DNA of 33,742 nt from a virus. Made by a program: the position numbers and the translations under genes. The stretch covers positions 1 through 33,742 of IMG/VR virus record IMGVR_UViG_3300034060_001688; one strand, written 5' to 3'. The notes under the pieces were generated by a model. It saw nothing but the letters and a program-made list of their open reading frames with translations, did no database searches and was not told the DNA's origin. Positions 23,681-33,345 of this stretch are shown piece by piece (the first letter of the stretch is position 1; each line of letters begins with the position of its first letter).

Positions 23681-24285
23681 CTGTGTTCTCCCGATTGTCG
23701 CCCGCAGTGGGCGAATGTCGTGAGCCAGCAGAAGCACAGACGCAGGGGTGGCAGGGTGGCAGTGACCGGCAGTGAGATTGCGGTCGCCGCCACCCCCCGT
23801 GCCACCCCTTGTTTTATTGATCGAGTCGAAATCTTCGCTGCGTCGCAGCGCGATTTGCAGGCTTTACAAACCCGACGGCCCACCACCCGCGATGTCGCAG
23901 ACAAGCCCGATCGACGGAATTTCCGCTTATTCGTCAACATTGGCCAGATTTCGGCGACATTCAGGGGTGGCAATGGGTGGCAGTGACCGGCAGTGGCGTG
24001 CCGCTTACCGTGCCGGTCCCTGATTTTCTTGAGAAATCGATGCGCGACGCGTCCGAGATCGAGTGTTGAAGCGCGAGTGATGTTTTCAACGGAAGCAGTT
24101 TTGGCAGGCTCGGCGCGCTAACCGTCCCAAAAGGCAGCGGCATGTGGGTGGCAGCGAGGCGGCACAGGGGTGGCACGCCATGCAGGGTCATTGCCGGTCG
24201 CTGCCACCCTGCCGGTCAGAGCGCCATGATTACCTTGATAGACCCGCGAATCTACGCGTCATGAACGGGGAAAGGAGGTGCGTCG
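23681..24285. repeat. Non-coding control region with GGGTGGCA repeat array
   Basis: No gene is supported in these 605 bases. GGGTGGCA occurs directly at 23746, 23754, 23965, 23975, 24146 and 24168, and inverted (TGCCACCC) at 23800 and 24202. A 21-base unit starting GGGTGGCAGTGACCGGCAGT is exact at 23754-23774 and 23975-23995. A 7 bp palindrome CGCTGCG-T-CGCAGCG lies at 23836-23850. The region separates the excisionase-like gene from the integrase. Integrase arm sites, an operator set or an origin are possible; the copies come in three clusters of two or three, as arm-type sites often do. Confidence 0.6.
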
Positions 24286-25545
24286 ATGCCAACACGAGAA
24301 CGCCTAACAGAGAAACTGGTGCGGGATGCCATCCCCGCCGAAGGACGCGATTACCAGATCTTCGATGACGACATCCGCGGCTTTGCGGTCTGCATCTATC
24401 GAGGAGGTGGCCGCGCCTTCACCTTCGACTATCGCGTGGCTGGACGACAGCGCCGGATGACTTTCGGGCGCTGGCCGGAATGGACCGTGACAGCTGCGCG
24501 CGACCGCGCGCGCGCCCTGCGGCGTGAGGTTGACCTTGGTGGTGACCCGCTTGGCGACCGTGATCAGATCCGCGAGGCGGCGCGCGTCAATGACTTGATC
24601 GATCGCTATCTCAAGGAGCACTGCGTCCGGCTCGCACCAACGAACGCGTCCGACCAGAAATCCATGATGATGAAACTGGTCGCGCCGCACTGGGGCAAGA
24701 AGCTCGTCACGGAAATCACCAAGGCCGATGTCGAGAAGCTCCTCGCGAAGGTCGCGGAGGGCAGGGCGCGGCCCCACAAGGAAAAGCCAAACAATCGCGC
24801 CCGCAAGCTTCAACCCGCGCGACCCACGCCGGTGCGGGCAAATCGCTTGGGGGAGGCGTTGCGCAAGATGTTCAACCTTGCTGTCGAGTGGGAGATGCGC
24901 GCCGACAATCCGGCCAGCAGCTTCTATCGTCGGATCGAGAATGCCCGCGAACGCTTCCTGACCAAGGAGGAGATCGATCGGCTGGCCAAGGCGCTGGAGT
25001 CCGATGAGGATCAGCGTGCCGCGGGCATTATCCGGATGTGCCTCTTGACCGGTGCTCGCGTTGGCGAGGTCCGCCAGTCGCGCTTTGAACAGTTCAACCT
25101 TGAACTCGGCATCTGGGCCAAGCCAGCGGCGACCACCAAGCAGCGCAAGGTCCACCGCGTGCCGATCTCGGACGAGGTCGCGGCGATTGTGCGCCAGCGC
25201 CAGTTGCTGGTGCCAAAGGGCAATCCCTGGCTTTTCCCTGGCGATGTGCCGGGGCAGCCCGTGAAGGAAATCCGACGGTTCTGGCGCCGCATTCAAGCGG
25301 AAGCCGGGATTGGTGACGCACGGATCCACGACCTTCGTCACACCTTTGCCTCGCTCCTCGTCAGCGGCGGGGCGTCGCTCGAGATGATCGGCAAGCTCTT
25401 GGGGCACACCCAAATGCAGACGACGCAGCGATACGCCCATCTGCTCGACGCCCCGCTGCGGGCGGGGCTCGATGCCGTGGCCAGTGCAGTCCGCCCACGG
25501 CTGACGATTGTGCAGAACGAACGGGTCGACCGTAAGTCAGCATGA
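24286..25545 (+). CDS. int: Tyrosine-type integrase (site-specific recombinase) with Arm-DNA-binding N-terminus
   Basis: This 419 aa protein is full length for a prophage integrase. Residues 1-90 are the arm-binding domain (DUF4102-like, FDDDIRGFAVCIYRGGG). The core-binding part follows. Catalytic residues appear in order: Arg in LLTGARVGEVRQ, Lys near TKQRKVHRVPIS, His-x-x-Arg in RIHDLRHTFASLLVS, His in LLGHTQMQTTQRYAHL with the nucleophile Tyr. AAAGGAGGTG (24271-24280) lies a few bases before ATG 24286. It would carry out integration at tRNA-fMet, whose 3' half is repeated at 32402-32448. It is separated from that site by 6.9 kb of cargo. Confidence 0.95.
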   Translation: MPTRERLTEKLVRDAIPAEGRDYQIFDDDIRGFAVCIYRGGGRAFTFDYRVAGRQRRMTFGRWPEWTVTAARDRARALRREVDLGGDPLGDRDQIREAARVNDLIDRYLKEHCVRLAPTNASDQKSMMMKLVAPHWGKKLVTEITKADVEKLLAKVAEGRARPHKEKPNNRARKLQPARPTPVRANRLGEALRKMFNLAVEWEMRADNPASSFYRRIENARERFLTKEEIDRLAKALESDEDQRAAGIIRMCLLTGARVGEVRQSRFEQFNLELGIWAKPAATTKQRKVHRVPISDEVAAIVRQRQLLVPKGNPWLFPGDVPGQPVKEIRRFWRRIQAEAGIGDARIHDLRHTFASLLVSGGASLEMIGKLLGHTQMQTTQRYAHLLDAPLRAGLDAVASAVRPRLTIVQNERVDRKSA

Positions 25546-25553
25546 TCTGCGAG

Positions 25554-26351
25554 TTATGGAACAAGTTCTTCGATCTCGATCGGAGACAAGAGCATCCTTG
25601 AACGCCTTTTGATACGACGCGTTAGATGCTGAAACATAGGATCGACACTTGCGGCGTCATAATACTGTGGGTTCTCCGGATCGTAGTCAGCGGCAACTTT
25701 TAAGCCAACGAATTTTGCGCCCCAACCGCGCGCAAGCATCTGTTCTGCGATCCGCGCCGCGTTTTCCGGTCGCTCGCCTTTATCCGGACCCTTGTTCGAA
25801 TTTCGCACGACGAAACCGCAAAGCTTACCATTTTTGTGGGCAAATATAGACGGATCCACATGCAGATCAGACTGCCAGCTTGCGATTGTCCATCCATTTG
25901 ACACCAGGTGCTGGCGCACGGCTTGCACGCCAACGTCGTGAATTTCCCAAGGTGTCATCAAGACAGGTTCATCGGTAACTAGCTCGAACGGATTAAGGGG
26001 TATTTGGCTTTTCCAATCAATCAAGCCCCATCCTTTTTCAACAACCTCCCAAGAGGAGCCGACGCGTTTCATAGGCATGATACAGCCTATGCCATTTGCG
26101 TCTTCCACTGCCGCTGTCAGTCGTCCTTCTTGGTACCACCCGTTATCCAGCGAACTCACATCAATGATCTGAATGAAAAACAACTGGTTGCCGAGCGCAA
26201 AAGAGAGATGCTCGCGGAACGGAGGTAAGTCAGCGCGTAGCCAAGATGCGCCAGCATCAAGTATGCGCAAATTCAGGTGACGACCCGCTGCCATCCAACA
26301 TGCTTCGAACTCAGGGGTCAGCTCGAACGGTTTGATCTGATAATTGGTCAT
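25554..26351 (-). CDS. Unknown cargo protein
   Basis: From ATG 26351 the protein is 265 aa (272 aa from ATG 26372). Neither start has a clear ribosome site. It begins MTNYQIKPFELTPEFEACWM. The C-terminal half has NGWTIASWQSDLHVDPSIFA and then HKNGKLCGFVVRNS, a layout a little like a PD-(D/E)XK nuclease, but the E-x-K half is not clear (V-R in place), so a nuclease role is not claimed. Base composition is visibly less GC-rich than in the structural genes. It lies convergent to the integrase, nine bases away, at the start of the cargo region. Confidence 0.55.
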   Translation of the reverse strand: MTNYQIKPFELTPEFEACWMAAGRHLNLRILDAGASWLRADLPPFREHLSFALGNQLFFIQIIDVSSLDNGWYQEGRLTAAVEDANGIGCIMPMKRVGSSWEVVEKGWGLIDWKSQIPLNPFELVTDEPVLMTPWEIHDVGVQAVRQHLVSNGWTIASWQSDLHVDPSIFAHKNGKLCGFVVRNSNKGPDKGERPENAARIAEQMLARGWGAKFVGLKVAADYDPENPQYYDAASVDPMFQHLTRRIKRRSRMLLSPIEIEELVP

Positions 26352-26454
26352 CGTAGAGCTTTCGGAAGTCATTAGTTGAGTTCAGTGTTACATGATGCTC
26401 GAAGGGTGGGCCATCTTCGTGGTTGACTGCAACCGTGGTCATGTTTGGCCTTGG

Positions 26455-27060
26455 TCATTTGTTTTCAGGCTTCTTGGTCAGCTCTCTCCAGATCGGCGTG
26501 ATCCGGCGACGTATCGAGCGCTCGTCTGGCACGTCGTTGCCGTCAGAGTGTTCCACGAACCAATCTTGCATTTCGGCTACGAGTTCACCTTGCGAGGCAG
26601 GCAGGCCGCGCTCGTGGATGCGCAGGGCCAAGGCTTGCAGCATGCCCTCCCAGTCGTAGGGCGACACTGAACCACTGCTACCACTGACCCGCCGAAAAAG
26701 TTCGTTCTTTTCCTCGAAGCGGTGGACGTGCTGGCCAGAAATCAAAAGGTCCGCCACTGAAACCTCGACGCCTGAAACAGGTTCGGTGATCAGCTGCCAG
26801 TCTGTTTCGGCTTTCGTGCGGAGGCGGCGTAGCCAGGCGGTCTGCGGTCCTGCCCCGCAGCGGCGGACCATCGGCAGGATGTCGAAGGCGGAAATGATGA
26901 CCTCGCCGGCGACGACCTTCTCGCCGCACATGGCTGGCGGAATGCCGGTCAGGATGTCAAAATGTCCGGCGGCAGACCAGCCTGCGACATCGGCGATGGT
27001 ATAGCCCCACCGTGCAGCTACTTCATGGACGGTATAGAATTCGCGTTTTGGCAGCTTCAT
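26455..27060 (-). CDS. HTH-like protein divergent from the WYL-Gabija operon
   Basis: From ATG 27060 (AAGGAG seven bases upstream) the protein is 201 aa. Residues 6-35 look like a MerR/excisionase-type HTH: YTVHEVAARWGYTIADVAGW. The middle contains ISAFDILPMVRRCGAGPQTA. The C-terminal part, DVPDERSIRRRITPIWRELT, is a second helical segment common in cargo-type proteins I have seen but cannot name. It is transcribed away from the WYL regulator gene across a 159-base shared region and could be a regulator or an adaptor of the defence cluster. Confidence 0.65.
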   Translation of the reverse strand: MKLPKREFYTVHEVAARWGYTIADVAGWSAAGHFDILTGIPPAMCGEKVVAGEVIISAFDILPMVRRCGAGPQTAWLRRLRTKAETDWQLITEPVSGVEVSVADLLISGQHVHRFEEKNELFRRVSGSSGSVSPYDWEGMLQALALRIHERGLPASQGELVAEMQDWFVEHSDGNDVPDERSIRRRITPIWRELTKKPENK

Positions 27061-27219
27061 GCTTGCTCCTTTTCTGATGCATGTGCCGCCCGCGCAAACG
27101 ACCGGCACCGTGTTCTTTGGAGTGCAAGCGGCCGTCAGCATTCCCCGGAGCCGATTCCGACTCGCTTGCGAAGCGATCCTGCACTAGCGTGGGCGTAAGA
27201 ACGCGACGTGGAGCCCCCT
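27061..27219. promoter_or_regulatory. Divergent control region with inverted repeats
   Basis: This gap serves both the 201 aa HTH-like gene and the WYL operon. It has TCGCTT-GCG-AAGCGA (27162-27176), a clean 6 bp palindrome with a three-base centre, about 45 bases before the WYL start. AGTGCA (27121-27126) and TGCACT (27180-27185) form a second, wider pair around it. This is a likely operator for an autoregulating WYL protein. No confident -35/-10 pair was identified. Confidence 0.5.
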
Positions 27220-28212
27220 ATGGCCTTCCGAAAAGCACAGGAACTTATCCGGCTGGCTGAGATGGCCGGCTCGCGATACCGCGGCGTGTGTCTGAACGAC
27301 GTCAGTGACGCCTTCGGGGTCAATCAGCGGACTGCCCAGCGCATGATGCGCGAGTTCGAGGAGGCTTTCCCGTCCTACATCTGCTCAACCGACAGCGATC
27401 GACGCCGCTGGTGGAAGCTGAGCGACACGACCTTAATGCACATGCAAGGTGTTCGCGCGAGCGAGCTTTCTGCCCTCGATATGGCCATTAAGCGCGCGCA
27501 GCACGAAGGCGCCGTCATGGATGTGCGGGGGCTGGTTTCTCTGCGCGATCGCTTGTTGGCCAGCATGCCGTCCATCCATGCACGCAAAACGGAGACCGAC
27601 GCTGCCGCGATCCTGGAGGCGCAAGGATTGGCATGCCGCCCTGGGCCGAAGGCAAAGCTTGCGCCCAACATCCTCGGGGCCATCGCCGAGGGTATCAAGG
27701 CGCCGTTCTCGATGGATATTGTCTATCAGGCCGCCCGAGATCCCGAGCCGCGTGTGCGGAAGGTTGAGCCCTACGGACTTCTGCTGGGGACGCGGCAGTA
27801 TCTGATTGCCCGGGACATCGAGAATGGCCGTGCCTATCGACGTTACCGCATGGATCGGATCACCAGCGCCAAGATCACGGGTCAATCCTTCGCCAGGGAT
27901 CCCGACTTCGACCTCGACGCCTTCGCTGTCCAGGCCTTCGGATCATACCATTCGGACGACGAGTACGGGCGCGTCGTGTGGAGGTTTGCACCCAGCGCCG
28001 CCGCTGTCGCGCGGGAGTTCGAATTCCATCCGACGCAGACAGCGACCGAAGAGCCTGATGGCGGCCTTCGCATCGAGTTCATGGCCTCGGGGTGGATCGA
28101 AATGATCTGGCATCTCTACCAGTGGGGGGATCAGGTCGAGGTCGTCGAGCCCGACGCCCTACGAGCGATGGTCCAAGGGTTTCAGCGGGCTGATTTGAGG
28201 GTGCTGCCATGA
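27220..28212 (+). CDS. WYL-domain transcriptional regulator of the defence operon
   Basis: From ATG 27220 (GGAG seven bases upstream; a GTG at 27208 is less likely) the protein is 330 aa. Residues 1-65 are a winged HTH with LNDVSDAFGVNQRTAQRMMR. Residues about 155-230 form the WYL domain with VEPYGLLLGTRQYLIARDIE and RYRMDRITSAKITG; the C-terminal WCX-like part includes ASGWIEMIWHLYQWGDQVEV. WYL regulators of the BrxR/CapW kind repress phage defence operons and respond to ligand. The stop lies 19 bases before the OLD nuclease start on the same strand, so it is likely the first gene of the operon. Confidence 0.88.
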   Translation: MAFRKAQELIRLAEMAGSRYRGVCLNDVSDAFGVNQRTAQRMMREFEEAFPSYICSTDSDRRRWWKLSDTTLMHMQGVRASELSALDMAIKRAQHEGAVMDVRGLVSLRDRLLASMPSIHARKTETDAAAILEAQGLACRPGPKAKLAPNILGAIAEGIKAPFSMDIVYQAARDPEPRVRKVEPYGLLLGTRQYLIARDIENGRAYRRYRMDRITSAKITGQSFARDPDFDLDAFAVQAFGSYHSDDEYGRVVWRFAPSAAAVAREFEFHPTQTATEEPDGGLRIEFMASGWIEMIWHLYQWGDQVEVVEPDALRAMVQGFQRADLRVLP

Positions 28213-28231
28213 CGGCGCGAAAGACGGTAGG

Positions 28232-30220
28232 ATGAAGATCGACACGCTCACGATAAAGAACTTCCGCTGCTTCGGTCCTGAGCCTGAAACTCTGTCGCTC
28301 GAATCTGGCGTCACAGCAATGGTCGGCGGAAACGGGGCTGGAAAGACGGCAGGATTGCAAGCGCTCGCGCGGCTCTTCGGCGTTTCTTCAGCGCAGCGGC
28401 AGATCCAGAAGCGCGATTTCCATCTTCGGCCCGGGGAGACCGAGCTCGTCTCTGGAGCCACGCTCGCCATCGAGTGCGTTCTGTCTTTCCCGGAGTTGGA
28501 CGGTCGAGATGATGACGTAGTTGCCGATTCTGTACCTGATTTCTTCAACCATATGGCGGCGACCGGTCCTGGCGAGCCGCTGAAGGCTCGGATACGGCTG
28601 CAGGCGACTTGGACTGATGATGGAACGCCGGACGGCACGGTCGAAGAAGACATTCGATGGATTGGCACGCTCGACAATCACTACGTTTGGGACGAATGCC
28701 AACGCGTCGCCGCTGTCGATAGAGGCACCATCCAACTCGTCTATGTGCCGGCAACGCGCAATCCGGCAGATCGAGTCACTGACTTGCTAAAAGGGCGGCT
28801 ATGGCGCGCTGCCAAATGGTCGGACCGCATGTCTAAAACGACCGAGCGCGGTGCGAAGCTGATCCAGAAGCGCTTCGAGCGCGAAGGGCCTTCGGAATTC
28901 ATCGTTGAGCGTCTCACGAAACGCTGGCAACAGGTCCATGAAGCAGACACCGATACCACGCCGGTTCTAAGGCTGGTGGAAAGCAGGCTCGAAGCACTCG
29001 TCAGGAACGTCGAATTTGCATTCCTTCCTGATGAGGCAGGCCGTGAACGGGCGCTTGCCGATCTGAGCGACGGTCAGCGGTCCCTGTTTCATATTGCTCT
29101 GACTGCTGCGACACTCGAAACTGAAAGGGATTCTTTGCGTCTGGTCGCTCCAGACAGCCCCTTCGACCAGGAGAAGCTTCGTCGCGCTCATCTCACGATC
29201 CTGGCGATCGAAGAGCCGGAGAACAGCCTGTCGCCATTCTTCCTGTCACGCATTATGAACCAGGCACGCGATATCGCGGCACTAGAATCGGCTCAGGTAC
29301 TGATCTCGAGCCACAGCGCCAGTATTCTGAGCCGCATCGAACCCGATGAGGTACGATACTTCAGGCTTGACAGGAACAGTAGGTCTTCATCAGTCAAGTC
29401 ACTGACCTTGCCCGAAGATGCTACCGAGGCCGGCAAGTATGTACGGCTTGCCGTGCGAGCTTACCCCGAACTGTACTTCGCGCGGTTCGTCATTCTCGGA
29501 GAAGGGGACTCCGAACGAATCGTGCTGCCACTTCTCGCCGACGCTATGGGCATACCTCTCGATCCGTCCTTCGTGCCTGTTGTGCCGTTAGGCGGGCGCC
29601 ATGTTGAACATTTTTGGCGGCTGCTGGACGCGCTGCAGATACCGCACGCAACGCTGCTCGATCTTGATCTCGGACGTGCGCACGGCGGAGCGAACATGAT
29701 CAGGTCCACCGTCAACGCGCTGGCCTCCATAGGAAACGATCTGAGCGACAATTTCGATGCCTTGATGGGCGATATCGATCTCAACGAGCTTTCCGCACTC
29801 TCCGACGAAGAGATGACTGATGGCTTTACAGATAATAATTGGATGCAAGCGCTCAAAGACGAAGGCGTCTTCTTTTCCGATCCACTTGATCTGGACTTCG
29901 CGATGTTCGCAGCCTTTCCGGATGCCTACAAGGTGCTGGAAGCCGGCGCACGCGGCCCCGACAACAGCGAAGAAGCTCTGAAAGGGAAGAAGGCGGCCAC
30001 TCTTAAAAAAGGGGGGAATGCAGATCTCTACTCACCTGATTGGGATGAGTGTTTCGTCTGGTATCCCTATCTTTTCTTGAACCGTAGCAAGCCCGAAACG
30101 CATCTTGCCGCGCTTAGTCGCATCCCGGCCGCCGATCTTGCCGCGAATGCGCCCGCAGAACTCCGCGCGTTGATCGCGAATGTCAAAAGCAAACTTGGTC
30201 TCGACGGCGGCGGGTCGTGA
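28232..30220 (+). CDS. OLD-family ATPase/TOPRIM nuclease, Gabija GajA-like
   Basis: This 662 aa protein begins MKIDTLTIKNFRCFGPEPET. ATPase motifs are complete: Walker A GGNGAGKT (32-39), signature LSDGQRS (278-284), Walker B LAIEEPE (324-330), H-loop SSHS (359-362). The TOPRIM part has EGDSE (424-428) and DLDLGR (477-482). The order ATPase then TOPRIM, and a neighbouring UvrD helicase, defines class 2 OLD nucleases, which includes GajA of the Gabija system. Gabija GajA is usually nearer 580 aa, so this one carries about 80 extra residues. It overlaps the helicase by TGATG. In known Gabija, GajA nicks DNA when nucleotides fall; that this one does so is inferred. Confidence 0.85.
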   Translation: MKIDTLTIKNFRCFGPEPETLSLESGVTAMVGGNGAGKTAGLQALARLFGVSSAQRQIQKRDFHLRPGETELVSGATLAIECVLSFPELDGRDDDVVADSVPDFFNHMAATGPGEPLKARIRLQATWTDDGTPDGTVEEDIRWIGTLDNHYVWDECQRVAAVDRGTIQLVYVPATRNPADRVTDLLKGRLWRAAKWSDRMSKTTERGAKLIQKRFEREGPSEFIVERLTKRWQQVHEADTDTTPVLRLVESRLEALVRNVEFAFLPDEAGRERALADLSDGQRSLFHIALTAATLETERDSLRLVAPDSPFDQEKLRRAHLTILAIEEPENSLSPFFLSRIMNQARDIAALESAQVLISSHSASILSRIEPDEVRYFRLDRNSRSSSVKSLTLPEDATEAGKYVRLAVRAYPELYFARFVILGEGDSERIVLPLLADAMGIPLDPSFVPVVPLGGRHVEHFWRLLDALQIPHATLLDLDLGRAHGGANMIRSTVNALASIGNDLSDNFDALMGDIDLNELSALSDEEMTDGFTDNNWMQALKDEGVFFSDPLDLDFAMFAAFPDAYKVLEAGARGPDNSEEALKGKKAATLKKGGNADLYSPDWDECFVWYPYLFLNRSKPETHLAALSRIPAADLAANAPAELRALIANVKSKLGLDGGGS

Positions 30221-32091
30221 TGCCGGCGGATCCCGAAGACTGGCTTCCGCAGGGCGTAGCCGACCTAGAACCGGGTGCGTGGCAGGCGCTGCGCGAGACC
30301 GGTAGAAGCGTTTGCCTTACCGCTGGGGCGGGCGCAGGGAAGACAGAATTTCTTGCACAGAAAGCGGCCTACCTTCTGCAGGCCGGAATTTGTCCGCCGC
30401 CCAAGCGCATCTTGGCCATCAGCTTCAAACGAGATGCCGCGCAGACTCTCATGTCGCGCGTAGGAAAGCGCTGCCCGCCCGATCAGGCGCGTCGCTTCAA
30501 CTCGGTCACTTTCGATGCTTTTACGAAAGGCATGCTAGATCGCTTTCGGGCTGCAGTACCGCAGCCATTTAGACCACCTGCTGACTATGAGATCGGCTTT
30601 CCGCGGCGCAACGATCTGGAGAATTTTCTCACGCGTCACGACCGGGGCGCGATCGGACCGCAGAAGCTGGAAATGGCGATTGCCCGTGCGCCTCTGCCAT
30701 TCGACGCAGAAGGCATTTCACCAGCGTGGCGCGAGCTCCTGAACGCCTACTGGCAAGAACAGTATGGGCGTCCGGCCGGGGCGTTGCTGTCGTTTGCCAT
30801 GATCAACAGGCTGGTCAATTATCTACTGCGCGAGAACCCAGCGGTACGGCGTGCTTTGCAGCTAACCTATCCCTTCGTATTCCTCGACGAGTTCCAGGAC
30901 ACGACCCACGCACAGTACGATCTAGTGAAGACCGCGTTTCACGGTAGCGATGCAGTGTTCACCGCAGTCGGAGATGACAAGCAGCGGATCATGGGCTGGG
31001 CCGGGGCGATGGACAACGCGTTCCAAGAGTTCGCAGCCGACTTTAACGCCGTAAATCTTGCGCTTCGCTTCAACTGGCGCTCCCACGCCGATTTGGTCGC
31101 TATTCAGCAGGTAATTGCGCAGCGTATCGATCCGGATGCAGACGAGGTCGAAGCCAAAGGGCAGTGCGCTGTCGACGGTCAGGTGGCCGCTCTGTGGCGC
31201 TTCGATACGCGGGAGCAAGAAGCGCAGCAGATTGCAGCCTGGATTGCGAACGAAGTGGAGAATGGCAGGGTCGAACCGCACGATTGCGCGATCTTAGTAC
31301 GTATGCGCGCTGATTACGTTGAAGCCGAGCTTGCCGAAGTCTTCGCCACAGAGGGGCTAACGATCAGGAACCTCGCGCGCAATGTCGGCGAGATTGCGCT
31401 TCAGGAACTGCTTGCCGAAGAGATAACCGATGTCATCCTGCCCCTTTTGAGGCTCGGGACAGGGAAGCGGAGCCCAGGTTCTTGGAACGCAGCGCAAGAA
31501 GAGCTGCAGGCGCTCTTCGCAATTGATCCCGATGACGAACGAGCGCAGGAAGGTCTACAGCGGAGCATTGAGGAATTCTCCTCTTCTTTACGGACAGCCA
31601 TGCGCGATAACGAACCGACAGGCGATAGCGCGGCGGAGATTTTTCGGATTGCACTGAAATTCGTTGGTGCCGATCGGCTGCGCCAAGCCTTTCCGGCTTA
31701 TCGACGCGAAGCGGACTTCGAGCGGGTAAGGAGGGGGTTCATCACCTTGCTTTCCGAATGTAGCGAGGCTGCGGACACTTGGTGCGACGCTCTCGATCGC
31801 TTCGAAGGCATAGGCCAAGTGCCTTTGATGACGATCCATAAGAGCAAAGGCCTTGAGTTTCATACCATAATTTTCTTCGGCCTTGATATGCAGACCTGGT
31901 GGAGCCTTTCGCCCGGTCGGGAAGAGGAGCTTAACTCCTTCTTCGTGGCGTTTACCCGCGCTATGCAAAGAGCCTTCTTTTCCTATTGCAGGGAGCGTGG
32001 ACAAGCCATTGTTTGGCTCGAGAACGTGCTTTTGCCTGCGGGCTTGGATCGGGTCGATGGGCTCACCCCTTGCTCGGTCGAACCTGAGTAG
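30220..32091 (+). CDS. UvrD/PcrA-type superfamily 1 helicase, Gabija GajB-like
   Basis: From ATG 30220 (GTG 30217 is an in-frame alternative) the protein is 623 aa. SF1A motifs are present: Walker A AGAGAGKTE (35-43), motif II LDEFQDTT (222-229), motif III VGDDKQRIMGWAGA (250-263), LRFNWRSH, then MTIHKSKGLEFHTIIFFGLD and FFVAFTRAMQRAFFSYC towards the end. This makes it an active-looking DNA helicase. GajB proteins are of this type and activate or complete GajA action. It is about 120 aa longer than commonly cited GajB. TGATG overlap with the nuclease gene implies paired translation. Confidence 0.85.
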   Translation: MPADPEDWLPQGVADLEPGAWQALRETGRSVCLTAGAGAGKTEFLAQKAAYLLQAGICPPPKRILAISFKRDAAQTLMSRVGKRCPPDQARRFNSVTFDAFTKGMLDRFRAAVPQPFRPPADYEIGFPRRNDLENFLTRHDRGAIGPQKLEMAIARAPLPFDAEGISPAWRELLNAYWQEQYGRPAGALLSFAMINRLVNYLLRENPAVRRALQLTYPFVFLDEFQDTTHAQYDLVKTAFHGSDAVFTAVGDDKQRIMGWAGAMDNAFQEFAADFNAVNLALRFNWRSHADLVAIQQVIAQRIDPDADEVEAKGQCAVDGQVAALWRFDTREQEAQQIAAWIANEVENGRVEPHDCAILVRMRADYVEAELAEVFATEGLTIRNLARNVGEIALQELLAEEITDVILPLLRLGTGKRSPGSWNAAQEELQALFAIDPDDERAQEGLQRSIEEFSSSLRTAMRDNEPTGDSAAEIFRIALKFVGADRLRQAFPAYRREADFERVRRGFITLLSECSEAADTWCDALDRFEGIGQVPLMTIHKSKGLEFHTIIFFGLDMQTWWSLSPGREEELNSFFVAFTRAMQRAFFSYCRERGQAIVWLENVLLPAGLDRVDGLTPCSVEPE

Positions 32092-32401
32092 CCTTTTCGA
32101 AGCCGAACCGGTGCCAGCCAGCGTTGTTTGTTTATCCGATGAGTGACCATTCCGTTCCGTCTTTCACACGGGGGCTGCGGGTCACATGGCGCTTTCGGTG
32201 CTCACGTCGGATGATTATTGTTGATCGCGGTTGGCGCGCTTACATCAACGCCACATCAACAGTCGAAAGTGGTTTAAAAACAATTGTCTGGCGTCCGCTG
32301 TCCGTGAACTTGGTCGAGTGTTGGGGAAGAAAATTTTGAAAATCAAAGACTTATAGGCTAAACCGTTGATTTTCATAAATTGTTGGAATCGTTGGGCTTT
32401 C
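32092..32401. other. Non-coding right arm of the prophage before attR
   Basis: No gene is supported in these 310 bases. The left half is unremarkable. The right half is AT-rich and has ACATCAAC twice (near 32242 and 32253), and a 9 bp inverted repeat GAAAATCAA (32338-32346) / TTGATTTTC (32366-32374). An 11-base repeat, ATCAAAGACTT, sits at 32342-32352 and again at 32463-32473 on the other side of the tRNA fragment. The AT-rich stretch next to the crossover region may hold integrase or host-factor sites. Confidence 0.55.
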
Positions 32402-32448
32402 GGCTCATAACCTGAAGGCCGCAGGTTCAAATCCTGCCCCCGCAACCA
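32402..32448 (+). other. attR: 3' half of a tRNA-fMet (CAT) gene
   Basis: The run starting GGCTCATAACCTGAAGG (32402 onward) and ending CCCCCGCAACCA holds the anticodon loop CTCATAA, a full T arm GCAGG-TTCAAAT-CCTGC, the 3' acceptor strand and CCA. The bases just before (TTTC then GG) do not complete the anticodon stem (a C-T mismatch), and no D arm or 5' acceptor TGCGGGG is present. It is thus the duplicated 3' half left at the right end of an element that integrated into tRNA-fMet. The intact gene should lie left of the window. Confidence 0.8.
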
Positions 32449-32528: not shown

Positions 32529-33152
32529 TCAACGTTTATTGAATGCTTGACCGCCCGCCTTGCGCAGGTAATTCTCGGCAGCCGCAATGAAGGTGGCGCA
32601 CGTATCCCGGCTGACTGTCGGCAATTCCTGCAGTTGCACATCCAGCGGCGAGCGTTCTGGCCAGAAATAGGGGGCCTTGGTGTCTGGGTGGATCCCGAAA
32701 CCCACGAACTGCTGCCCGGTTGCCAGCACCTCGACCCGTGCCACGGTGCCATCCAGCATCTGGAATTCGCTGGTCTGCACCTTGTCGAAGGGCACATCGG
32801 TGCGGACGGCCAGCAGGATCTTCGGCGCGCGCCCGATGCGGCACAAAGGTGAAGGCCCCAGCATATCGCTGGCCATGCCGGTCAGTCGGCTTGCATGGCC
32901 GGCGTCGAGCACATCGATGTCAATGCCGATCAGGGTGCCGCAGAGCAGGCCGGTATTGGTGCAGTTGCGTTGGGCGTTGGTCCAGCGGGTGATTTCGGCC
33001 TCGTCGGCCGTCGCGCAGACGGCCTCCCAGGATTTCATGGCTGGACGCTTTCCGGCGGCCTTCGTGGCCACATTCGGACCAAGGACGGGGACGGGGCGAT
33101 AGGCGTTGCGATGGAGGGTCAGGCGCAGGTCGGTGCAGGAAAAGGTCGAGGT
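32529..33152 (-). pseudogene. Truncated bifunctional primase-polymerase (prim-pol) domain
   Basis: This minus-strand frame holds LHRNAYRPVPVLGPNVATKA, then AAGKRPAMKSWEAVC, and later GLLCGTLIGIDIDVLDAGHA and RIGRAPKILLAVRTDVPFDK. They match the prim-pol domain found at the N-terminus of phage and plasmid primases, with the metal Asp pair in GIDIDV. The domain ends at RKAGGQAFNKR and a stop, with no helicase half. The frame continues upstream to ATG 33254, but those 30-odd residues are antisense to an integrase fragment. The original start is lost. It is a remnant from another mobile element beyond attR. Confidence 0.65.
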
Positions 33153-33156
33153 GACG

Positions 33157-33345
33157 ATGCGCTGGCATGATCTGCGCCACTTCGCCGTGTCGCTCTGGAT
33201 CGAGCAGGGGTTCTCGATCAAGGAGGTGATGACCTTCGCGGGCCATTCCTCCATCCAGATGACGATGGAACGGTATGGGCATCTGTTCCCCTCGCCAGAT
33301 CACCAAAAGGCCATGGCCATGGTGGAGGCAAAGCTGCTGGGGTGA
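33157..33345 (+). pseudogene. C-terminal fragment of a second tyrosine integrase
   Basis: The 62 residues beginning MRWHDLRHFAVSLWIEQGFS carry the HxLR catalytic motif, then GHSSIQMTMERYGHLFP with the second His and the nucleophile Tyr. It matches the last third of a tyrosine recombinase different from the intact integrase at 24286. No arm or core-binding domain is present. The frame is open upstream (to 33106), but that is antisense to the prim-pol remnant. The junction is at about 33150, suggesting that two deleted elements were joined. Confidence 0.78.

What the first reader, a model, noticed from the sequence alone, without database searches (positions are those of the whole stretch)
27220..32091. 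Prophage-borne Gabija-type system controlled by a co-operonic WYL regulator
An intact class 2 OLD nuclease (ATPase and TOPRIM motifs complete) and an intact UvrD-type helicase overlap by one base, behind a WYL regulator 19 bases upstream. Both are larger than commonly described GajA and GajB (662 and 623 aa versus about 580 and 490). Gabija is mostly described as a two-gene system; a WYL gene in the same operon suggests inducible expression and possibly a variant subtype carried by a phage.
Basis: partly seen in the sequence, partly recalled or inferred. Interest (0 to 1): 0.74.

Follow-up and report, generated by a model that had tools for sequence, protein, structure and literature searches.

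The report
Prophage Gabija behind phage-borne WYL switch
A bacterial virus that lies dormant in its host carries a known anti-virus nuclease-helicase pair (Gabija), dropped as interchangeable cargo behind a regulator that belongs to the virus itself and resembles a known sensor of damaged, single-stranded DNA.

Summary
In detail: an intact 330-aa WYL gene, a 662-aa OLD nuclease and a 623-aa UvrD-type helicase lie in tandem at 27220-32091. The pair matches PADLOC GajA and GajB over full length (2e-240, 4e-211), so it is an ordinary member of a large-protein Gabija clade. The claim of a WYL-containing Gabija subtype fails: none of 79 independent relatives (45-86% identical) has this WYL gene, while GajB is always present. 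The WYL gene is instead a full-length homologue of Caulobacter DriD, the ssDNA-activated regulator. It belongs to a temperate phage lineage: integrase, a convergent conserved gene (phrog_13283), then WYL divergent from that gene. Nineteen of 71 loci of this lineage have it, and in about a dozen it heads the phage replication operon. The GajAB cassette fits exactly between the WYL stop and the tRNA-fMet attachment end. Relatives carry CBASS, retron, DSR1, Septu-type or restriction genes in that arm. Best reading: Gabija as cargo in a phage defence hotspot, probably co-transcribed with a DriD-like phage regulator. The interesting residue is that regulator: a candidate SOS-independent, ssDNA-sensing phage switch. 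That function is inferred, not shown.

The parts
24286..25545 (+). phage tyrosine integrase (419 aa)
   Evidence: Homologues precede and converge with the phrog_13283 gene in nearly all loci of the lineage; DNA similarity to relatives L136, L137, L144, L153, L169 and L219
26455..27060 (-). phrog_13283-family gene (PHR), about 201 aa, HTH-like N-terminus, convergent with integrase and divergent from WYL
   Evidence: PHROGs 2.8e-73; 34 of 293 genomes of the order; 36 IMG/VR contigs; AlphaFold model without PDB match
27061..27219 (.). divergent PHR-WYL promoter region
   Evidence: Intergenic by position; no significant operator found in the window itself
27220..28212 (+). DriD-like wHTH-WYL-WCX regulator (330 aa)
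   Evidence: phmmer 1.5e-46 and profile 5e-69 to the full-length chains 9pfq / 8tp8; Pfam WYL and WCX
28232..30220 (+). GajA, class 2 OLD nuclease (ABC ATPase + TOPRIM, 662 aa)
   Evidence: PADLOC GajA PDLC00090 2.1e-240; Pfam AAA_15/AAA_21/OLD-like_TOPRIM; invariant K38, E327/E328, E424, D477, D479; Foldseek to GajA and TsOLD
30220..32091 (+). GajB, UvrD/Rep-type helicase (623 aa)
   Evidence: PADLOC GajB PDLC00103 4.1e-211; Pfam UvrD-helicase and UvrD_C
28230..32064 (+). GajAB cassette as a unit of horizontal exchange
   Evidence: About 77% DNA identity to seven Rhodobacteraceae GajAB loci and one plasmid begins at 28230 and ends at 32064, without WYL or phage flanks
32237..32452 (+). attachment-end arm with tRNA-fMet 3' end (core repeat 32424-32448)
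   Evidence: Same sequence closes the cargo arm in relatives L144, L153, L219, L140 and L169

Best explanation
The segment is a Gabija cassette carried as cargo by a temperate phage of Rhodobacterales. Shown by comparison: the phage's conserved integration module is integrase -> <- PHR (phrog_13283), often followed by a divergent DriD-like WYL gene; the arm between this module and the tRNA-fMet attachment end is a hotspot of interchangeable, mostly defence, genes; in this phage the GajAB cassette lies directly behind the WYL gene. Inferred: GajA (nuclease) and GajB (helicase/NTPase) form the usual Gabija complex and act on DNA of competing phages in the lysogen. Inferred: WYL, gajA and gajB are read as one transcript from the PHR-WYL promoter region, so defence expression is tied to the phage's own regulator. 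By homology to DriD that regulator is expected to be activated by ssDNA, which arises on DNA damage or infection.
For: Full-length GajA/GajB matches; invariant ATPase and TOPRIM residues; AF2 model matches GajA and OLD structures; GajB adjacent to GajA in all loci with sufficient sequence. Phage backbone: terminase, portal, capsid, protease, tail genes, replication and ParB/MTase genes. WYL homologous to DriD over full length. WYL-PHR divergence in 19 of 71 PHR loci, and att on the cargo side in 16 of 16 layout-1 and 18 of 19 layout-2 loci with a recognised att. WYLs of the two phage layouts each form one clade. Mosaic junctions: GajAB similarity starts at 28230, phage WYL similarity ends at 28208, att-arm similarity starts at 32237. 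GC3: WYL 0.746, integrase 0.762, GajA 0.627, GajB 0.641. Cargo in the same arm elsewhere: CBASS cyclase + phospholipase, retron VI RT, kinase, DSR1, PtuA-like, GajAB + SacI-type enzyme without WYL (L169).
Against: No expression data: co-transcription rests on the 19-nt spacing, with no terminator-like site in the gap and no promoter-like site before gajA in a consensus scan that is weak for alphaproteobacteria. No DriD-type GAC-N7-GTC operator was found in the window's PHR-WYL region. DriD-like ligand sensing is inferred from homology only. Anti-phage activity of this pair is untested, and its sequence identity to the studied B. cereus GajA is low.
Confidence: 0.66

Rival explanations
1. WYL-GajA-GajB is a dedicated three-gene Gabija subtype whose WYL regulator co-evolved with the pair.
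For: 19-nt spacing and same strand; WYL regulators are known to sit with BREX and other defence systems (PMC9122601).
Against: 0 of 79 independent GajA relatives in genome contigs (76 of them with at least 1.2 kb upstream) and none of 6 plasmid loci has the WYL; neither of 2 other IMG/VR GajA contigs has it. The WYL follows phage phylogeny and sits beside other cargo elsewhere.
Confidence: 0.05
2. The WYL gene is the phage's lysogeny/induction regulator, acting on the PHR-WYL divergent promoters; GajAB is merely downstream and expressed from the lysogenic state, without meaningful damage induction.
For: In about a dozen phages WYL is the first gene of the replication operon, divergent from PHR, next to integrase. 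The PHR/WYL divergence is the part that stays constant when the module is inverted relative to the backbone.
Against: Most loci of the lineage (52 of 71) have PHR without an adjacent WYL, so WYL is accessory to the basic switch; its regulatory sign is unknown.
Confidence: 0.3
3. GajAB is passive cargo with its own cryptic promoter; the nearness to WYL is accidental and without regulatory consequence.
For: The shared DNA of the cassette starts only 2 nt before the gajA start codon whatever the upstream gene, so GajAB must work behind many neighbours; L169 carries GajAB in the same phage arm without WYL.
Against: Only 19 nt separate WYL and gajA, with no terminator-like or promoter-like site found.
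Confidence: 0.2

Closest known systems
Gabija (GajA-GajB; class 2 OLD nuclease + UvrD-type helicase), e.g. Bacillus cereus VD045
   Same: ABC ATPase + TOPRIM nuclease followed directly by UvrD-type helicase; full-length PADLOC matches; model resembles GajA structures
   Different: Larger proteins (662/623 aa), low sequence identity to VD045 GajA, carried by a Rhodobacterales phage behind a WYL gene
DriD of Caulobacter crescentus (ssDNA-activated WYL transcription activator)
   Same: Homologous from the wHTH to the WCX domain; R180, Y194, R210 and R213 of the WYL groove align with DriD arginines and tyrosine
   Different: Phage-encoded, next to integrase and PHR; ligand, targets and regulatory sign unknown; no DriD-type operator seen in the window
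Prophage/satellite anti-phage hotspots (P2, P4, Vibrionales, Bacillales; Rousset et al. 2022, PMC9122126)
   Same: Small variable arm between conserved phage anchors carrying exchangeable defence systems
   Different: Different phage lineage (Rhodobacterales, tRNA-fMet site); arm bounded by the integrase/PHR/WYL module and the attachment end
BrxR / CapW (WYL repressors of BREX and CBASS)
   Same: WYL regulator near a defence system
   Different: Only remote similarity (BrxR 4e-4 with the profile against 5e-69 for DriD); not conserved with the defence genes here

Membership tests
Gabija | OLD-type nuclease with N-terminal ABC ATPase and C-terminal TOPRIM | tested here: met
   PADLOC GajA 2.1e-240, Pfam AAA_15/AAA_21 and OLD-like_TOPRIM, invariant catalytic residues, Foldseek to GajA/TsOLD
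[quoted passage not shown]
   PADLOC GajB 4.1e-211; adjacent in every relative locus with sequence to show it
Gabija | helical insert in TOPRIM typical of class 2 OLD | tested here: inconclusive
   Model shows several helices at 487-566 beyond the TOPRIM core, but no residue-level superposition was available
Gabija | GajA-GajB complex and anti-phage activity | not testable with these tools
   needs biochemistry and phage challenge
DriD-type ssDNA-activated WYL regulator | wHTH - three-helix bundle - WYL - WCX architecture | tested here: met
   alignment over residues 3-321 with DriD chains
DriD-type ssDNA-activated WYL regulator | basic/aromatic WYL groove residues | tested here: inconclusive
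   R180, Y194 and R210/R213 are conserved and align with DriD; their role in ssDNA contact is inferred from PafB work (PMC11804915)
DriD-type ssDNA-activated WYL regulator | GAC-N7-GTC type operator near the gene | tested here: not met
   absent from the window's PHR-WYL region; a perfect CCCTGAC-N7-GTCAGGG dyad only in the closely related loci L190/L191/L193
DriD-type ssDNA-activated WYL regulator | activation by ssDNA | not testable with these tools
   needs binding and transcription assays
Prophage anti-phage hotspot | variable arm between conserved phage anchors | tested here: met
   att copy on the cargo side in 16 of 16 layout-1 and 18 of 19 layout-2 loci with a recognised att
Prophage anti-phage hotspot | several different defence systems at the same position | tested here: met
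   CBASS, retron VI, kinase, DSR1 and PtuA-like, Gabija twice (window, L169)
BrxR/CapW-type WYL repressor | closest sequence relationship to BrxR/CapW | tested here: not met
   DriD 5e-69, BrxR 4e-4

The most novel reading that the evidence does not exclude
A temperate phage lineage has taken up a DriD-type ssDNA sensor as part of its integration/early-control switch, giving an SOS-independent, ssDNA-triggered induction or early-gene activation pathway; defence cargo such as Gabija or DSR1 placed behind the same gene becomes damage- or infection-inducible.
Probability: 0.3. Interest if true: 0.75.

Novelty: new variant of a known kind. Interest (0 to 1): 0.5.

Why it matters
Gabija itself is well known and its presence in prophages is not surprising. 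What is less expected is a stable, phage-borne homologue of DriD in the integrase/early-operon control region, with exchangeable defence cassettes inserted behind it. If it senses ssDNA, prophage induction and prophage-encoded immunity in this lineage could respond to DNA damage or infection without RecA/LexA, and that is directly testable in laboratory alphaproteobacteria. I found no paper in the searchable library that describes a WYL regulator as a phage switch gene; the library is incomplete.

Tried and rejected
Single-sequence scans of viral contigs with GajA and WYL found nothing; alignment queries worked. A search for PHR in the phage record collection found nothing. A DriD-type operator in the window was sought and not found; palindromes there are no better than in shuffled sequence. 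The early idea that integrase, PHR, WYL and GajAB formed a separate island inserted beside the phage was dropped when the phage early genes proved to flank the same module in relatives and the tRNA-fMet end closed the arm. The PHR fold search gave no meaningful PDB match. A GajA-wide phylogeny with the B. cereus proteins was not built; PADLOC models, identities and fold comparison were used instead. No tRNA gene or Rfam family was found in the window itself.

Full report
What is there. The helicase and nuclease match the PADLOC GajB and GajA models over full length, Pfam finds ABC ATPase, OLD-like TOPRIM and UvrD domains, and 28 aligned relatives keep the Walker A lysine K38, the acidic pair E327/E328 at the Walker B position and the TOPRIM acids E424, D477 and D479. 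An AlphaFold model of GajA (mean pLDDT 84) has the Thermus OLD nuclease and Gabija GajA as best PDB matches. A class 2 OLD protein next to a UvrD-type helicase is what current usage calls Gabija (review PMC10568477). The sizes are not unusual for the clade: the matching PADLOC models are 659 and 612 positions long and the relatives align over the same length.

The window is an IMG/VR record of 33.7 kb. Its left two thirds are phage structural and replication genes. A 99.95% identical stretch lies in an uncultured Rhodobacterales MAG (L016).

The WYL gene is not part of Gabija. A scan of one genome for each of 84,980 species returned 80 GajA loci, one of them the window's own host contig. Of the other 79 (45-86% identical), none has a WYL gene of this type in the flanks (up to 8 kb), although 76 hold at least 1.2 kb upstream; GajB follows GajA in every locus with enough sequence. 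Six plasmid loci and two further IMG/VR contigs agree. In 293 genomes of the same order, 7 have such a GajA and only the host MAG has WYL beside it.

What the WYL gene is. It is homologous from end to end to DriD of Caulobacter (phmmer 1.5e-46, profile 5e-69), while BrxR is only marginally similar. DriD is held inactive by its three-helix bundle until ssDNA binds its WYL domain, and then activates promoters (PMC12340889). PafBC, another WYL activator, also responds to ssDNA (PMC11804915).

Where the WYL gene belongs. The host MAG has eight such paralogues. In four of them, the window's included, the gene lies divergent from a phrog_13283-family gene (PHR), and an integrase convergent with PHR follows where the contig reaches that far. 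Across genomes and IMG/VR, 71 loci carry PHR; 19 have the WYL gene divergent from it. These counts include some records of the same isolates. Two layouts exist. In layout 1 (window) the replication genes lie left of the integrase and the WYL gene heads the arm that ends at the attachment site. In layout 2 the WYL gene is the first gene before AlpA-like, VRR-NUC and replication-initiator genes, the place of an early or immunity regulator. The WYL proteins of each layout form one clade, and both together are separate from WYL genes beside TM0106-type nucleases on plasmids. The regulator is therefore best read as a phage gene inherited with the integration module.

The cargo arm. A copy of the tRNA-fMet 3' end closes the arm on the cargo side, at window 32424-32448 and in 34 of 35 loci of the two layouts where a copy was recognised. 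Other phages carry in this arm a CBASS cyclase and phospholipase, a type VI retron reverse transcriptase, a defence-type kinase, DSR1 directly behind WYL (split into two frames) and a PtuA-like ATPase. Another phage of the lineage (L169) has GajAB with a SacI-type enzyme and no WYL. DNA comparison shows the joints: similarity to free-standing Rhodobacteraceae GajAB cassettes begins at 28230 and ends at 32064; similarity to phage WYL genes ends at 28208; similarity of the attachment arm begins at 32237. GC3 of WYL (0.746) is that of the phage backbone; that of GajA and GajB is lower (0.63-0.64).

How it probably works. Shown: architecture, mosaic origin, conserved active sites. Inferred: GajAB protects the lysogen against other phages as Gabija does; a recent preprint proposes that Gabija acts on linear DNA not occupied by RecBCD (PMC12407980). 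Inferred: WYL and gajAB are co-transcribed, given 19 nt between them and no terminator-like or promoter-like site in between (weak evidence). Inferred from homology: ssDNA activates the WYL protein. Whether it activates or represses here, and whether its main target is the PHR/WYL promoter pair, the early operon or the cargo, is open. A perfect CCCTGAC-N7-GTCAGGG dyad 38 nt before WYL in closely related layout-2 phages has the spacing and GAC-N7-GTC core of the DriD site, but such a site is missing in the window and the palindrome scan there is no better than shuffled sequence.

Verdict. As a claimed Gabija subtype the finding is not supported. As a prophage-borne Gabija in a defence hotspot it is a new example of known kinds. 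The phage-borne DriD-like regulator is the part worth following.

Noticed in passing
G001 contigs L136-L142: The host MAG holds eight DriD-like WYL paralogues, several beside the same PHR gene and integrase, so it seems to contain several related prophages or to be a mixed bin.
   Followed up: partly
L190, L191, L193 (variants in L156-L158, L195, L206, L009): Dyad CCCTG(A/T)C-N7-GTCAGGG about 38 nt upstream of WYL, with the same geometry as the DriD target.
   Followed up: partly
window 23754-23995 and 24188-24213: Direct and inverted copies of GGGTGGCAGTGACCGGCAGTG between the AlpA-like gene and the integrase; possible operators or origin repeats.
   Followed up: no
window 25554-26372: A GC-poor (51%) 272-aa gene without family match separates integrase and PHR in this phage; most relatives have only 3-40 nt there.
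   Followed up: partly
window 32529-33345: Right of the attachment end lie a Prim-Pol domain protein (minus strand) and an integrase C-terminal fragment (plus strand), apparently remnants of another element or host flank.
   Followed up: no
L010-L015, L143: On plasmids DriD-like WYL genes are repeatedly divergent from TM0106-family RecB-like nucleases, another unexplored pairing.
   Followed up: partly
window 26455-27060 (PHR): Conserved phage protein with a confident model (pLDDT 85) but no meaningful match in the PDB.
   Followed up: yes
L219:11221-15050: DSR1 directly behind a phage WYL gene, split into two overlapping frames (frameshift or sequencing error).
   Followed up: partly
L007/L012 (Agrobacterium vitis plasmid): Gabija and a DriD-like WYL gene about 6 kb apart in one defence island, not adjacent.
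   Followed up: no
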